Part shown: positions 19,936-46,166 of the stretch, one piece after another | Position numbering within the stretch: the stretch's first letter is position 1 | Layout of the letters: every line of letters begins with the position of its first letter | Assembly (NCBI GenBank): GCA_023212695.1 | Contig: JALCCG010000070.1 | Span: forward strand, 23,238-87,237 | DNA length: 64,000 nt | Direction: 5' to 3' | Source of the DNA: Sporisorium sorghi | Taxonomy: Eukaryota; Basidiomycota; Ustilaginomycetes; Ustilaginales; Ustilaginaceae | Position numbers and translations under genes: made by a program | The notes under the pieces: model-generated | Databases searched by the model: none | Told to the model about the DNA's origin: nothing | What the model saw: the letters and a program-made list of their open reading frames with translations, nothing else

Positions 19936-22900
19936 ATGAAACCGATTCTGTTGAAGTTATCCGGTTTGCAGAGCTACCGCAGTACGCAGGAAATTGATTT
20001 TGAAACGTTGTGTGAAACCGGACTTTTCGGGATATTCGGTCCGACTGGAAGCGGGAAATCCACACTGCTAGATGCCATTACACTGGCTATGTACGGGAAA
20101 GTGGAGCGCGCGGTTAACGGCACCCAGGGAATCATGAACCATTCGGAGGACAGCTTGTCTGTCTCCTTTACGTTTGAGCTTTCTTCTGCTGCCGGGCTGG
20201 AGCGATACCGGGTAGAGCGGAGATTTAAACGAGTGAATGAGCTCTCCATCAGCAATACGATCAGCCGTTTTATCCAAGTTACACCCGAAGGGGAGCAAGT
20301 GATGGCGGATAAGCTGGCCGACGTCACCCGCTGCGTAGAAGAGAAAATCGGATTGAAGATGGACGATTTTACCCGTGCGGTCGTGCTCCCTCAAGGGAAA
20401 TTCGCCGAATTCCTATCCCTGAAGGGCAGCGATCGCAGGCAGATGCTCCAGCGGCTGTTTCATTTGGAGAGGTACGGAGATCAGCTTGCCATGAAGCTCA
20501 GCCGCCGGGTGAAGGATACGGACGGTGCCCTGAAATCCATAGAAGCGGAGCAGCAAGGGCTGGGCAGCGCGGGCAAAGAGGCTTTGGCAGAAGCGAAAAC
20601 AGCGCTGGAAGATGCTAAGAAACTCGCTGTATCCTCCCGCAGCCGTCTCCAGGCCACAATTGAGGCGCATGAAGCTCTGGGAAAAATTCGCGAGCTGGAC
20701 ATGGAGAAGCAACGGTTGTTGGGCAAGCTGGATGAATTGTCTGCTCAAGAGGAAGAGATTAAGCGGCTGGAGCACCGGCTGGAACTGACGGGAGCAGCTG
20801 CCGCTGTCCTCCCTGCGCTTGAGACGTGGCGTGATACCGGCAAAACGTGGGAAACTCGGCTCAGGCATGCCGAGGGGCTCACCAAGCAGGCTGCAGCAGC
20901 TCAGCAGGCTGCTGAACAGGCGGGCACAGCAGATGAAGCTGCCCAGGCAGCGCTCATCGCAGAGGAGCCAAAGCTCGTGCTGCGTGAGCAGCAGCTCGAG
21001 CAAGCTGTCTTATTGCAGCAAGAGCGGGATGTTTTGTCCAACGAGTTGGCCCGGTTGGATGTACAGCGAGCGGATGCCCGCAAAGAATTCGAGACGGTGG
21101 GCGCGCAGCTCCAGAAGGAGCAGGAGCTACTTGAACGAGGACGCAGACGGCGGGAGGAGCTGCAGGATAAGCTCAAAGGGCTTGAGACCCGCTCAGGTGA
21201 GCGTCAGGCGCTTCATGCGGCGATGCAGAAGGTTCAGGCACTGGGGGCAGCCCGTAAGCATAAGGAAAAGGCAGAACACGAACTGAAGCAGCAGGAGATC
21301 AAACTCAAGGAGCAAGAGTTAAGGCTCAGTATGCTGCAGAAGCAGGAAGTGGAACTGCAGCAGCGATACATAAAGCTCTCGGCACATGCCGGCAATCTGC
21401 AGCGTTCTGCCGCTGAAGTTGCGGCGTTTGCCGACCGGACGGCAGTTGCGGCCAGCCAGGTAAACCAGGCGATGAATCAATTGCTTCGTGAAAAGCAGCT
21501 TCATGATTTGTCCATGTCGCTGGCTCTTGAGCTACAGGAGGGTAAGCCTTGTCCCGTATGCGGAAGCGAGCATCACCCTCTTCCTGCGGCAGCTTCGGAG
21601 CCGTCTGATACGACCTCTGACGAGAACCTGGATAGACTGTCACGGATTGTACATCAGATACAGGAAATCCGATTGACCCTGCGGGGGCAGCTTAACGAAG
21701 CGGAATCTCTGGTGAGTCATTTGAATGCCCAGACGGAGCCGTTCGCTGGAAGCGAACTCCTTCTCGAGGGCCCTCGTGAGGAGCAGGACGAAGCATGGGT
21801 GGAAGCTGCAGCCTCAGGAGTGCCTGTTGTTGAAACACCGTACGATGTGGAGAGGCTTGCTTCAGACACTGCATGGCTGGTGCAAAGAGCGGAAGCACAG
21901 GCAGCTGCCATTGGGCAGTGCCGAATGGAAGCGTCCAAGGCTCAGCAGAGCCTCCACGCTTGCCAACAGGAGCTCATGAAGCAGAATGCTGCGGCTGAGA
22001 ATGGTCAGACGATAGTGAACCAACTGCGCGATCAGCTTGCAGGCTTGGAAGCCGAAACTGCCGACATTCAAAGTTTATGGCAGGAGGACAACCCGGCATT
22101 TCCTTTGGAAGAGACGGCTGATCGTTTTCAGCTCATGCAGCAAAAGGATTCGGAGTCCGAGTCCATTAGGGAAGGGCTTGAACGAAGCGTTCCCTTCATT
22201 GAGGAGAAGCAGCAGGCGGTCCTCCGCCTGGAGCAGAAGCTTCGTGAGCTGGAGAAGCTGCTGATTCAGTGGGATGCCCAGCGTGAGGGCAAAGCTGAAG
22301 TGTTGAAAGACAAGAAAGAGCGCCTTCAGGCATGGATTGGGGAACGATCCGCTGAAGAGCTGTTGAGCGAATGCCGATCCAGATTGAAGCTTCTGAAGGA
22401 ATCCGCTGAGCAGGCCAGAGGCAAGCGCAGAAAGGCCGATGAGGCGGCGCAGCTTGCAGCCAAAGAAGCAGCTCTTGCAGAACAGGCTGCAAACGCCGCA
22501 CAGGAGCTGTATCTTGCTGCCAAGCTTGCATGGGAGAAGCAACTGGAAGCCTCGCCGTTTGTTACGGAGGCAGCCGTTATGGAAGCCTGCTTATCCGAGA
22601 GCGAAACCGAACGATGTGCCCAGCTGGTGAAGGCGCATCGTGAGGGACAACGAGAATGGACGCTAAGGCTGCGGGACGTCGAGCAGAAGCTCGGCACCGA
22701 TCCATTCCGTCAAGAGGAATGGGAACGAAGCTCTGCCGAGCTTCAGGCGGCTCGTACGGCCGATGAGGAGGCCGTACGGGCGAAAGCCAGAGCGGAGCGG
22801 GACCTGGAAGATTTGGAGAAGCGACATATCCGGTTTATGGAATTGGAAGAGCTGCGCCTTGGCCTTCAACGGGAAAGCGAGCGCTTGTCCAAACTGCAGT

Positions 22901-23385
22901 CCTGCTTGCGAGGCAATGCATTCGTGGAATACATTGCGGAAGAGCAGCTGATGCAGGTGAGCCAGTCTGCTTCCCAGCGTCTTCGCTTCTTGACCAAGCA
23001 GCGCTACTCGCTTGAGGTGGATTCCGGGGGAGGCTTTGTCATTCGGGATGACGCCAACGGCGGCGTAAGGCGGCCGGTATCCACGCTATCCGGCGGTGAG
23101 ACATTCTTAACCTCGCTGGCCTTGGCTTTGGCGCTTTCAGCGCAGATTCAGCTTCGGGGGCAGTATCCGCTCCAGTTCTTCTTCCTTGATGAAGGCTTTG
23201 GCACCCTGGATCCGGAACTGCTGGAGACGGTTATCACCGCTCTGGAGCGGCTTCATAACGATAAGCTTACCGTCGGCATCATCAGCCACGTGCCAGAGCT
23301 TCGGGCGCGTCTGCCGCGGAAGCTGGTCGTGCGGCCTGCGGAGCAGGCTGGAGAAGGATCGCAGCTTGCGATCGAATCGCTGTAG
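19936..23385 (+). CDS. sbcC: Exonuclease SbcCD subunit C (Rad50-like SMC ATPase)
   Basis: A 1149-residue SMC-family ATPase that tethers and gates the SbcD nuclease. Walker A (FGPTGSGKSTLLDA) lies at residues 35-50, then two long coiled-coil arms rich in Glu, Gln, Ala and Leu flank the zinc hook CPVCGSEHHP at about residue 540. The C-terminal head carries the signature STLSGGETF and Walker B FLDEGFGTLD. It begins on the base after the sbcD stop, consistent with coupling. The coiled-coil region is longer than in compact family members. Confidence 0.95.
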   Translation: MKPILLKLSGLQSYRSTQEIDFETLCETGLFGIFGPTGSGKSTLLDAITLAMYGKVERAVNGTQGIMNHSEDSLSVSFTFELSSAAGLERYRVERRFKRVNELSISNTISRFIQVTPEGEQVMADKLADVTRCVEEKIGLKMDDFTRAVVLPQGKFAEFLSLKGSDRRQMLQRLFHLERYGDQLAMKLSRRVKDTDGALKSIEAEQQGLGSAGKEALAEAKTALEDAKKLAVSSRSRLQATIEAHEALGKIRELDMEKQRLLGKLDELSAQEEEIKRLEHRLELTGAAAAVLPALETWRDTGKTWETRLRHAEGLTKQAAAAQQAAEQAGTADEAAQAALIAEEPKLVLREQQLEQAVLLQQERDVLSNELARLDVQRADARKEFETVGAQLQKEQELLERGRRRREELQDKLKGLETRSGERQALHAAMQKVQALGAARKHKEKAEHELKQQEIKLKEQELRLSMLQKQEVELQQRYIKLSAHAGNLQRSAAEVAAFADRTAVAASQVNQAMNQLLREKQLHDLSMSLALELQEGKPCPVCGSEHHPLPAAASEPSDTTSDENLDRLSRIVHQIQEIRLTLRGQLNEAESLVSHLNAQTEPFAGSELLLEGPREEQDEAWVEAAASGVPVVETPYDVERLASDTAWLVQRAEAQAAAIGQCRMEASKAQQSLHACQQELMKQNAAAENGQTIVNQLRDQLAGLEAETADIQSLWQEDNPAFPLEETADRFQLMQQKDSESESIREGLERSVPFIEEKQQAVLRLEQKLRELEKLLIQWDAQREGKAEVLKDKKERLQAWIGERSAEELLSECRSRLKLLKESAEQARGKRRKADEAAQLAAKEAALAEQAANAAQELYLAAKLAWEKQLEASPFVTEAAVMEACLSESETERCAQLVKAHREGQREWTLRLRDVEQKLGTDPFRQEEWERSSAELQAARTADEEAVRAKARAERDLEDLEKRHIRFMELEELRLGLQRESERLSKLQSCLRGNAFVEYIAEEQLMQVSQSASQRLRFLTKQRYSLEVDSGGGFVIRDDANGGVRRPVSTLSGGETFLTSLALALALSAQIQLRGQYPLQFFFLDEGFGTLDPELLETVITALERLHNDKLTVGIISHVPELRARLPRKLVVRPAEQAGEGSQLAIESL

Positions 23386-23401: not shown

Positions 23402-23444
23402 TGTGATATATATCACGGAAACAGCAACAAGGCACTGTTATAGT
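23402..23444 (+). promoter_or_regulatory. Fnr/CRP-type operator plus -10 element (class II layout)
   Basis: TGTGA-TATATA-TCACG at 23402-23417 contains the perfect 14-base palindrome GTGATATATATCAC and matches the Bacillus Fnr consensus TGTGA-N6-TCACA at 9 of 10 fixed positions. Its centre is 23409.5. A -10 hexamer TATAGT lies at 23439-23444, predicting a start near 23451, so the operator would be centred at -41.5, the position used by Fnr-activated promoters. Confidence 0.55.
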
Positions 23445-23450
23445 ACAGTT

Positions 23451-23578
23451 AAGCCGACATATACAAGAAGCACCGGGCAGGCGCTTGATCATGGGGGATT
23501 CCTAACTTTTCCCTTGCTCTCATGATGAAGCGCCTCCTTACTGGACAGCTGCGTTCCAGGGGTGCTTCTCTTTTTTTT
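23451..23578 (+). ncRNA. Candidate Fnr-controlled small RNA with three-way junction and intrinsic terminator
   Basis: From the predicted start the RNA folds by eye into a closing stem P1 (AGAAGCACC 23466-23474 with GGTGCTTCT 23561-23569), P2 (23480-23493 with 23521-23534, 13 of 14 pairs) with a 27-base loop, and P3 (CTGGA 23541-23545 with TCCAG 23555-23559). T8 follows at 23571-23578. The P2 loop is pyrimidine-rich (CTAACTTTTCCCTT) and the junction after P2 contains CCTCCTTA, an anti-Shine-Dalgarno sequence. There is no credible reading frame: ATG 23491 stops after four codons, and ATG 23522 has no binding site. It could instead be only an elaborate terminator of sbcC. I recognise no known RNA family. 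Confidence 0.5.
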
Positions 23579-23602: not shown

Positions 23603-23632
23603 TTGGACGCATGGTCCATTTTCTTATATGAT
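23603..23632 (+). promoter_or_regulatory. Promoter of the HIT gene
   Basis: TTGGAC at 23603-23608 and TATGAT at 23627-23632 with an 18-base spacer. Confidence 0.6.
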
Positions 23633-23667: not shown

Positions 23668-24027
23668 ATGGATTGTCTTTTTTGTAAAATTGTAGAGGGT
23701 GAGCTTCCTTCGACGAAAGTACTCGAGAATGATAAGGTGCTTGTATTTCAAAATATTAACCCGGAAGCACCTGTTCATGTATTGATCATTCCCAAGAAGC
23801 ATATCGCATCCATGAACGATATTCAGGATGAGGATTCGCAGCTGATTGGTGAGATGCACCAAGCAGCAAAAGAAGCTGCGGCCAAGCTTGGCATTGCAGA
23901 GAGCGGTTATCGGATGATTAACAACTGCGGACCTGATGGAGAACAATCGGTGTTCCATGTACATTATCATCTGATGGGCGGCCGTCGTTTAGGTGCATTG
24001 ACAGGCATTTCACCCGCTCATACATAG
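23668..24027 (+). CDS. HIT family (histidine triad) nucleotide hydrolase
   Basis: A 119-residue member of the HINT-like branch, which hydrolyses AMP-lysine-type phosphoramidates and adenylylated intermediates. The N-terminal CLFCKIVEGE is the zinc-associated cysteine pair of many bacterial members, and the catalytic triad motif HVHYHLMGG is intact near the C-terminus. ATG 23668 is preceded by GAAAGGGG. It is a single-gene unit between its own promoter and a weak terminator hairpin (24053-24083). Confidence 0.93.
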   Translation: MDCLFCKIVEGELPSTKVLENDKVLVFQNINPEAPVHVLIIPKKHIASMNDIQDEDSQLIGEMHQAAKEAAAKLGIAESGYRMINNCGPDGEQSVFHVHYHLMGGRRLGALTGISPAHT

Positions 24028-45750: not shown

Positions 45751-46166
45751 GTTGTCCGGAAAGTTTGACAGACAATCGCTGGCGGTGCAAGCCGCGAGAG
45801 GAAAGTCCGGGCTCCATAGGGCAGGGTGCTGGATAACGTCCAGTCAGCGCGAGTTGAAGGATAGTGCCACAGAAATGGACCGCCGATGACCGCTTCATTG
45901 CGGCACAGGCAAGGATGGAACCGAGGTGTAAGAGACCCCGAGGAACGCTGGTGACTTCGTTCCTGGTAAACCCCACCTGGAGCAAGACCTAATGGGACGC
46001 AGTTTCCTTCGAGGAGACAGCCTTAGCCCGAGGCGCGTCCGGGTTGGTCGCTTGAGTCGATTAGTAATGATCGGCCTAGATAGATGATTGTCGCTTATGG
46101 TGGCAGGGTAGTTCCCGCTATGACCACGAAGAGCACAGAACCCGGCTTACGGAAAACTTTCCCAAC
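45751..46166 (+). ncRNA. rnpB: RNase P RNA, Bacillus type (class B)
   Basis: The catalytic RNA that removes tRNA 5' leaders. Universal elements are visible: GAGGAAAGTCCGGGCTCC (P4 5' side), GGTAAACCCC, the AGATAGATGATTGTCG-type segment and ACAGAACCCGGCTTACGG near the 3' end (P4 3' side). The 5' GGAAAGTTT pairs with the 3' AAACTTTCC to form P1. Its length of about 416 bases fits type B. Confidence 0.95.

What the first reader, a model, noticed from the sequence alone, without database searches (positions are those of the whole stretch)
23402..23578. Candidate Fnr-activated small RNA between sbcC and the HIT gene
A near-consensus Fnr operator (TGTGA-N6-TCACG, perfect 14-base palindrome) is centred at -41.5 relative to the start predicted from TATAGT, the canonical class II activator geometry. 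The transcript would run about 128 bases, fold into a three-way junction with long, almost perfect helices, expose the pyrimidine-rich loop CTAACTTTTCCCTT and an anti-Shine-Dalgarno CCTCCTTA, and end in T8. No credible ORF exists. This combines the anaerobic control seen for enterobacterial FnrS with the C-rich seed style of Gram-positive sRNAs. About two 9-of-10 operator matches are expected by chance in 64 kb, so the weight rests on spacing plus the folded terminator RNA.
Basis: partly seen in the sequence, partly recalled or inferred. Interest (0 to 1): 0.82.

Follow-up and report, generated by a model that had tools for sequence, protein, structure and literature searches.

The report
Conserved oxygen-controlled small RNA of Paenibacillus
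A stretch of DNA between two ordinary Paenibacillus genes looks like a widely conserved small RNA gene, probably switched on by the oxygen sensor Fnr, whose front end matches the front end of the messenger for a glycolysis enzyme.

Summary
In detail: window 23402-23578 has a perfect TGTGA-N6-TCACG operator, an extended -10 and a 128-nt terminated RNA with a three-way-junction fold. The operator alone is at chance level. Comparison decides: a sequence-only promoter model finds the element in 90 of 100 genomes of the genus and 224 of 394 of the family. GTGA-N6-TCAC is intact in 91 of 92 promoters at a fixed distance from the -10. All 113 distinct RNAs fold multi-branched, 110 three-way, with covariation. 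Fnr homologues are in 100 of 100 genus genomes. Rfam has no match. So: a new, probably Fnr-activated sRNA family.

The conserved open element is the 5' end, AAGCCGACAU. Its best candidate target is the 5' end of fba (aldolase) mRNA, complementary beyond shuffles in 53 of 55 genomes. Against it: most sRNA-negative relatives keep the motif, and pairing is weak in the window's own species. Expression, target and direction are untested.

The parts
23402..23417 (+). Fnr-type operator TGTGATATATATCACG, centre -41.5 from the predicted start
   Evidence: GTGA-N6-TCAC intact in 91 of 92 promoters and in 29 of 29 further ones
23421..23424 (+). ACAG just 3' of the operator (-30 to -27), nearly invariant ACA, last base G (59) or C (33 of 92); role unknown
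   Evidence: columns 20-23
23436..23444 (+). extended -10, TGT-TATAGT (consensus TGTTATAAT)
   Evidence: TGTTATA-N-T invariant in 92 of 92
23445..23448 (+). ACAG between -10 and start; with the preceding CTGT (23435-23438) it forms CTGT-N6-ACAG around the -10; role unknown
   Evidence: ACAG invariant in 92 of 92; CTGT in 79, TTGT in 13 of 92
23451..23465 (+). unpaired 5' end of the RNA with the conserved seed AAGCCGACAU
   Evidence: GCCGACA in 108 of 113 and CCGACA in 112 of 113 distinct RNAs; P(unpaired) 0.99 here
23466..23474 (+). P1, 5' strand (junction-closing and terminator stem)
23475..23538 (+). P2 hairpin with 19-nt pyrimidine-rich loop 23498-23516; its 3' strand holds most of CCTCCTTA (23533-23540), which is paired
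23541..23559 (+). P3 hairpin (not tested for covariation)
23561..23569 (+). P1, 3' strand
23571..23578 (+). T8 tract of the intrinsic terminator
19936..23385 (+). sbcC, upstream neighbour; a homologue lies just upstream on the same strand in 114 of 120 loci
   Evidence: best NCBIfam match sbcC, below its curated cut-off
23668..24027 (+). HIT-family gene, downstream neighbour, with a -10-like TATGAT of its own (23627-23632)

Best explanation
A stand-alone gene for a trans-acting sRNA of about 110-130 nt. Without oxygen the [4Fe-4S] form of the Bacillus-type Fnr binds GTGA-N6-TCAC at about -41.5 and recruits RNA polymerase to an extended -10 with no good -35 (class II activation). Shown by sequence: operator, spacing, -10, terminator, fold, their conservation, and presence of Fnr. 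Inferred: binding, induction, direction. The RNA is a three-way junction closed by the terminator stem, which should make it stable, and it leaves a 5' end of about 15 nt single-stranded whose AGCCGACAU is nearly invariant and acts as seed (inferred). The best-supported conserved partner is the 5' end of the fba (class II fructose-bisphosphate aldolase) mRNA, which carries (G)AUGUCGGCU near the start of its leader, about 42 nt before the start codon and 27 nt before the Shine-Dalgarno sequence (medians). A 5'-to-5' duplex there would leave the Shine-Dalgarno sequence free but would block the end used by RNase J1, so mRNA stabilisation and more glycolysis in anaerobic cells is the likeliest outcome (inferred from the RoxS-yflS case). 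Sub-confidences: real sRNA gene 0.93; Fnr is the activator 0.78; 5' end is the seed 0.75; fba is a target 0.5; stabilisation rather than repression 0.3.
For: Element in 90 of 100 genus genomes and 224 of 394 family genomes, one copy each but for G223 and G276 (two). GTGA-N6-TCAC in 91 of 92 with central bases free; operator-to--10 distance fixed in 92 of 92; the seed is kept while its distance from the -10 shifts (84, 3, 4 and 1 of 92 at +0, +1, +2, +3), so the constraint there is probably on the RNA. 113 of 113 distinct RNAs fold multi-branched, 110 three-way; 112 of 113 have the closing helix abutting the U-tract, against 100 of 1130 shuffles, and no shuffle was as stable. P1 and P2 on 28 RNAs: 96.8% of cells paired, 12 of 19 pairs with changes on both sides, 0 of 500 shuffles as high, slid controls far lower; same picture on 15 loci that include two deeper clades (89.2%, 14 of 18 pairs, 0 of 500). 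Fnr with C-terminal cysteine cluster; homologue in 100 of 100 genus genomes; GTGA-N6-TCAC upstream of fnr in 20 of the 20 loci looked at, 0.03 expected from shuffles. fba leader: 53 of 55 sRNA-positive genomes pair better than 95% of shuffled leaders by energy, 45 of 55 by run length; TATAAT-N5-20-GTCGGCT in 10 genomes: 9 of 30 hits are fba, one in each of 9 genomes. RoxS precedent for 5'-end protection from RNase J1: PMC5419742 (abstract and outline).
Against: No expression, binding or target data. The fba motif is kept in most of 12 related genomes without a detected sRNA (mean duplex -13.9 against -17.3 kcal/mol in 56 sRNA-positive ones, P = 0.004 without correction for relatedness); only G004 (-4.0) and G009 (-8.6) have clearly lost it. 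G008, whose sbcC-HIT gap is too short for the element, still pairs over 7 bp. In the window's own species the longest uninterrupted Watson-Crick match is 6 bp (-13.3 kcal/mol). Genomes whose seed reads ACCGAC (G018, G034, G043, G044) show no compensatory change in fba. The 10-mer ATGTCGGCTT is not enriched genome-wide (93 in 5 genomes, 85 for the backwards control), and the promoter-proximal pattern is not more frequent in total than its control (30 against 32). One other homologous promoter-like site recurs in two genomes (L403, L397) with no gene start found after it. Fnr is also present in the 10 genus genomes without a detected sRNA. ATG ORFs of at least 10 codons close inside 57 of 113 RNAs, though none has a Shine-Dalgarno-like start and the phase is not kept.
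Confidence: 0.67

Rival explanations
1. AAGCCGACAT is a DNA element: one protein binds it just downstream of both the sRNA and the fba promoters, in opposite orientations, and the transcripts do not pair.
For: The motif lies at the start of both transcripts; it persists in fba of most sRNA-negative relatives; the ACAG a few bases before it is invariant.
Against: The motif is not palindromic, shifts by 1-3 bp against the promoter in 8 of 92 sRNA genes, is open in the folded RNA (104 of 113), and the 10-mer is not enriched in five genomes as a regulon would be.
Confidence: 0.15
2. The element is only the terminator or 3' end of sbcC, or a leader of the HIT gene, without an independent transcript.
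For: It follows an sbcC homologue in 114 of 120 loci and ends in a terminator.
Against: Its own promoter is the most conserved part; the HIT gene has its own -10-like site and starts 224-1400 nt after the operator in the 106 of 120 loci where it was found, with another gene between in at least 24, which does not suit a leader.
Confidence: 0.05
3. The operator is used by another regulator with a similar palindrome, Rex (repressor) or a cAMP-type CRP, so that redox state or carbon source, not oxygen, is the signal.
For: TGTGA-N6-TCACA is shared by CRP, Fnr and, in part, Rex sites (recalled); RoxS is repressed by Rex (abstract). The operator middle differs from the boxes upstream of fnr, most of which have A after GTGA.
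Against: The base after GTGA is A in 0 of 92 genus promoters and in 4 of 29 further ones, whereas Rex sites have A there (recalled); with Pfam PF00325 only two Crp-HTH proteins were found in the 23-Mb assembly (a lower bound) and both end in a cysteine cluster; -41.5 with an extended -10 and no good -35 suits an activator. Rex binding was not tested.
Confidence: 0.14
4. The RNA represses rather than protects, or acts on other mRNAs through clade-specific loops (CCTCCTTA or CTCCTT as anti-Shine-Dalgarno); the fba match is secondary.
For: CTCCTT occurs in 50 of 113 RNAs; the window's clade pairs poorly with fba.
Against: Loops and junction strands vary between clades while the 5' end does not.
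Confidence: 0.3

Closest known systems
FnrS (enterobacterial Fnr-activated sRNA)
   Same: Intergenic sRNA gene with a predicted Fnr-dependent promoter; anaerobic control; probable regulation of central metabolism.
   Different: No Rfam match; different fold (three-way junction closed by the terminator); different seed; Firmicute with C-terminal-cluster Fnr. FnrS features are recalled, apart from its listing as Fnr-controlled in PMC8139620 (passage).
RoxS / RsaE (Bacillus, Staphylococcus)
   Same: Firmicute sRNA tied to respiration; [quoted passage not shown]
   Different: RoxS is under ResDE and Rex and pairs with yflS through a C-rich region (section heading); here Fnr-type operator, no conserved UCCC, no Rfam match.
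Class II Fnr/CRP promoters with extended -10
   Same: Operator at about -41.5, extended -10, poor -35.
   Different: Invariant ACAG on the 3' side of the -10, giving CTGT-N6-ACAG in 79 of 92 copies, is not part of that geometry as I recall it.
Intergenic transcripts of Paenibacillus riograndensis (PMC5670726)
   Same: dRNA-seq of a Paenibacillus reports 77 intergenic transcripts, including 27 small RNAs of which 3 were given a name (passages); this RNA may be one of them.
   Different: Their tables are in supplements that I could not open, so identity is unknown; the passages I read give no Fnr link or family.

Membership tests
FnrS | Sequence/structure match to a known Rfam family | tested here: not met
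   only RNase P reaches a gathering score in the window; in 9 homologous loci the only hit at E<=1 is a snoRNA model at E 0.7
FnrS | Fnr-type operator at an activating position | tested here: met
   91 of 92 promoters, fixed spacing to the -10; start site predicted only
FnrS | Fnr-dependent anaerobic induction | not testable with these tools
   needs expression data
FnrS | Hfq-dependent pairing | not tested
   -
RoxS/RsaE | Match to the Rfam family | tested here: not met
RoxS/RsaE | C-rich single-stranded UCCC seed | tested here: not met
   unpaired UCCC in 6 of 113 distinct RNAs
Fnr regulon of Firmicutes | Fnr with C-terminal cysteine cluster in the genome | tested here: met
   L082 protein ends ICHCEMCPLEICRI, L083 alike; homologue in 100 of 100 genus genomes, in G004 and G052 in two pieces; C-terminal cluster of B. 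subtilis Fnr from PMC8139620 (passage)
Fnr regulon of Firmicutes | Operator resembles boxes at the fnr gene of the same genus | tested here: met
   GTGA-N6-TCAC upstream of fnr in 20 of 20 loci, the best-matching 20 of 100 genomes; the middle bases differ
trans-acting base-pairing sRNA | Own promoter and terminator, no conserved ORF | tested here: met
   (by sequence only)
trans-acting base-pairing sRNA | Conserved complementarity to a target, with compensatory changes | tested here: inconclusive
   complementarity to fba conserved but no compensatory pair, and kept in most sRNA-negative relatives

The most novel reading that the evidence does not exclude
The first Fnr-activated sRNA family of Gram-positive bacteria: when oxygen runs out it pairs head to head with the 5' end of the aldolase mRNA, blocks RNase J1 and so raises glycolytic flux, a direct RNA link between oxygen sensing and glycolysis across Paenibacillaceae.
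Probability: 0.25. Interest if true: 0.82.

Novelty: new member of a known kind. Interest (0 to 1): 0.63.

Why it matters
It would be a family-wide sRNA of an ecologically and industrially important group, with a likely trigger (oxygen), a likely regulator (Fnr) and one concrete candidate target. It makes it directly testable whether Fnr controls an sRNA in Gram-positive bacteria and whether sRNA protection of mRNA 5' ends against RNase J1 is more than the RoxS-yflS case. Paper searches showed no description of it in the titles and abstract starts listed; most of these lists were capped (for example 20 of 3,289) and only open-access papers are held, so it may well be in print, for instance as an unnamed transcript in PMC5670726.

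Tried and rejected
Operator as evidence by itself: rejected, chance level. C-rich loop or anti-Shine-Dalgarno as family seed: rejected. Known Rfam RNA: none. Peptide-coding RNA: ATG ORFs of at least 10 codons in 57 of 113 but no Shine-Dalgarno-like start in any of these, and phase 38/23/19. Plasmid spread: no match in plasmid records with one homologue. Target search with the 10-mer ATGTCGGCTT in 5 genomes (93 hits, control 85): of 91 distinct sites held, 70 lie inside a same-strand open frame of at least 100 codons; fba in G091 was followed because it sits at a promoter-proximal 5' end; the rest were not tested for conservation, among them single-genome sites at a tatA-like gene (L287) and upstream of a proS-like (L237) and an adenosylhomocysteinase-like gene (L263) (names recalled from the translated starts).

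Selections and drops. Covariation used 28 of 39 representatives; L085, L088, L115, L125, L164, L204-L208 and L222 were left out before the count as deeply diverged or cut short by my first end rule. One search repeats the count on alignment A2, where two of the deep types (L004 = L088, L006 = L085) are kept. Both structures were derived from the same alignments, which favours them. P3 was not counted. The first fold count (102 of 113) was too low because RNAs were cut at an internal T5; re-cut. fba rows: G114 and G125 dropped (leader not parsed); G107, G119, G121, G122 (distant, shown) and second fba-like copies not counted; G012 and G013 (distant) left out of the test; 12 of 29 genomes and 1 of 30 gave no match at the cut-off used. 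G145 (sRNA-positive, its locus not fetched) is counted as positive only. The 20 fnr loci are the best-matching of 100. Absence of the sRNA in 10 genus genomes rests on model R1; all 10 were searched again with laxer filters (G007; G004 and G008; the other seven) and gave nothing at E<=0.001; some of these assemblies are fragmented.

Full report
What was checked. The sequence is as described: TGTGATATATATCACG (23402-23417), TGTTATAGT (23436-23444), predicted start 23451, terminator T8 (23571-23578). The RNA folds to -52.2 kcal/mol, z -4.67. The operator is not rarer than chance when one mismatch is allowed (6 found, 6.7 expected), so everything rests on comparison.

Where the window lies. It sits in contig C441 of a 23-Mb assembly with 469 contigs, too large for one Paenibacillus. 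The HIT protein is 97% identical to that of Paenibacillus lautus. Genome G035 holds an element identical to the window's (L094) and an Fnr identical to the one on contig C111 of the same assembly, so the window is a Paenibacillus contig.

Conservation. From 15 loci next to HIT homologues I built R1, a sequence-only model of operator to RNA position 10, so that nothing about the fold entered the search. It hits 90 of 100 genomes of the genus and 224 of 394 of the family sample (strict filters, so a lower bound), one copy each except two in G223 and G276. In 92 copies (91 fetched loci and the window) GTGA-N6-TCAC is intact in 91, the six central bases vary, the distance to the -10 never changes, and TGTTATA-N-TACAG is invariant; 29 of 29 further loci keep GTGA-N6-TCAC. 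The copies are related, so these are not independent counts. The seed lies 1-3 nt further from the promoter in 8 of 92 but is kept, which points to a constraint on the RNA. In 114 of 120 loci an sbcC homologue lies just upstream (end of the aligned part 1-532 nt before the operator); HIT starts 224-1400 nt downstream in 106.

The RNA. 121 RNAs give 113 distinct sequences of 109-159 nt. All 113 fold multi-branched, 110 as a three-way and 3 as a four-way junction. In 112 of 113 the closing helix abuts the U-tract and leaves the 5' end free; 100 of 1130 shuffles do so, and none of 1130 is as stable as its original. On 28 diverse RNAs P1 and P2 are formed in 96.8% of cells, 12 of 19 pairs show changes on both sides, 0 of 500 shuffles reach any of the five measures, and sliding the partners drops pairing to 32-48%. 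On the 15 loci of A2, including two deeper types, the figures are 89.2%, 14 of 18, 0 of 500 and 39-55%. The structures tested came from the same alignments, which favours them somewhat. No ORF is conserved. No Rfam family fits.

The regulator. Two Crp-family proteins were found in the assembly with PF00325; both end in a cysteine cluster, ICHCEMCPLEICRI and ICHCEECPKEICRM, as the cluster of B. subtilis Fnr is C-terminal (PMC8139620, passage). A homologue is present in 100 of 100 genus genomes (in G004 and G052 in two pieces), including the 10 without a detected sRNA, so presence of Fnr does not separate them. GTGA-N6-TCAC boxes lie upstream of fnr in 20 of 20 loci, the best-matching of the 100; 0.03 would be expected from single-letter shuffles. 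A published transcriptome of Paenibacillus WLY78 reports fnr up 6.84-fold under nitrogen-fixing conditions (PMC4774088, passage), which fits a role at low oxygen but says nothing about this RNA.

The target. The 5' end is open (mean unpaired probability 0.93 over the first 10 nt of 113 RNAs; 0.99 in the window). Its complement ATGTCGGCTT is not enriched in five genomes (93 against 85 backwards), but one hit is the start of the fba leader in G091 (fba by TIGR01859 and PF01116). The leader was then read in 30 of 30 and 15 of 17 matched genomes, and for 55 sRNA-positive genomes in all. CGG of the motif lies 16-23 nt after TATAAT in 68 of 70 leaders, and the start codon 57-73 nt after it. 53 of 55 leaders pair with their own sRNA better than 95% of shuffled leaders by energy, 45 of 55 by run length; the longest run including G-U is 8-14 in 41 of 55. 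In 10 genomes TATAAT-N5-20-GTCGGCT gives 30 hits, no more than the backwards control (32), yet 9 of them are fba in 9 different genomes. These genomes were chosen because 9 of them were known to have the motif in fba, so the informative part is that no other gene start recurs; one other homologous site occurs in two genomes (L403, L397) without a gene start found after it and without a same-strand open frame of 60 codons.

Against the target. Twelve related genomes without a detected sRNA keep much of the motif (mean -13.9 against -17.3 kcal/mol; P = 0.004 uncorrected); two of them, G096 and G106, keep it fully, and G008, whose sbcC-HIT gap is about 43 nt, keeps 7 bp. Only G004, whose gap is about 105 nt and too short for the element, and G009 have clearly lost it. 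In the lautus group, the window's own, only 6 uninterrupted Watson-Crick pairs remain. Seeds changed to ACCGAC are not matched in fba. So fba is a good candidate, not a proven target, and a shared DNA motif is a live rival.

Mechanism. If pairing is real, the duplex lies at the mRNA 5' end, about 27 nt before the Shine-Dalgarno sequence and 42 nt before the start codon (medians of 67 leaders). For RoxS and yflS such pairing impairs RNase J1 and raises expression (PMC5419742, abstract and outline). I therefore favour stabilisation of fba mRNA in anaerobic cells, with low confidence in the direction.

Verdict. On re-checking I lowered the Fnr sub-confidence from 0.80 to 0.78 and the overall confidence from 0.68 to 0.67, and raised the rival regulator from 0.12 to 0.14, because 4 of 29 further operators do have A after GTGA.

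Noticed in passing
23435-23448 (CTGTTATAGTACAG): CTGT-N6-ACAG surrounds the -10; ACAG between -10 and start is invariant in 92 of 92 promoters, which a plain discriminator does not explain; perhaps a second operator.
   Followed up: partly
L229, about 1414-1510 of its reverse complement (G153): A tandem repeat of 43 bp, not in an open frame of 50 codons on that strand, carries three perfect copies of ATGTCGGCTT, the complement of the sRNA 5' end; satellite or possible sponge.
   Followed up: no
45760-46164: RNase P RNA class A, the only match in the window at Rfam gathering scores.
   Followed up: no
L082 700-960: Three GTGA-N6-TCAC boxes between fnr and a divergent gene that looks like adhE (recalled); three boxes also lie upstream of fnr in 14 of the 20 loci and one in the other 6.
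   Followed up: partly
L083: A second Fnr-like protein with the same cysteine tail; second copies 43-47% identical to the first were found in 12 of 100 genus genomes and 58-59% in three others; whether it shares the operator is unknown.
   Followed up: no
whole window: The window belongs to a 23-Mb assembly of 469 contigs that probably mixes organisms; this contig is Paenibacillus.
   Followed up: partly
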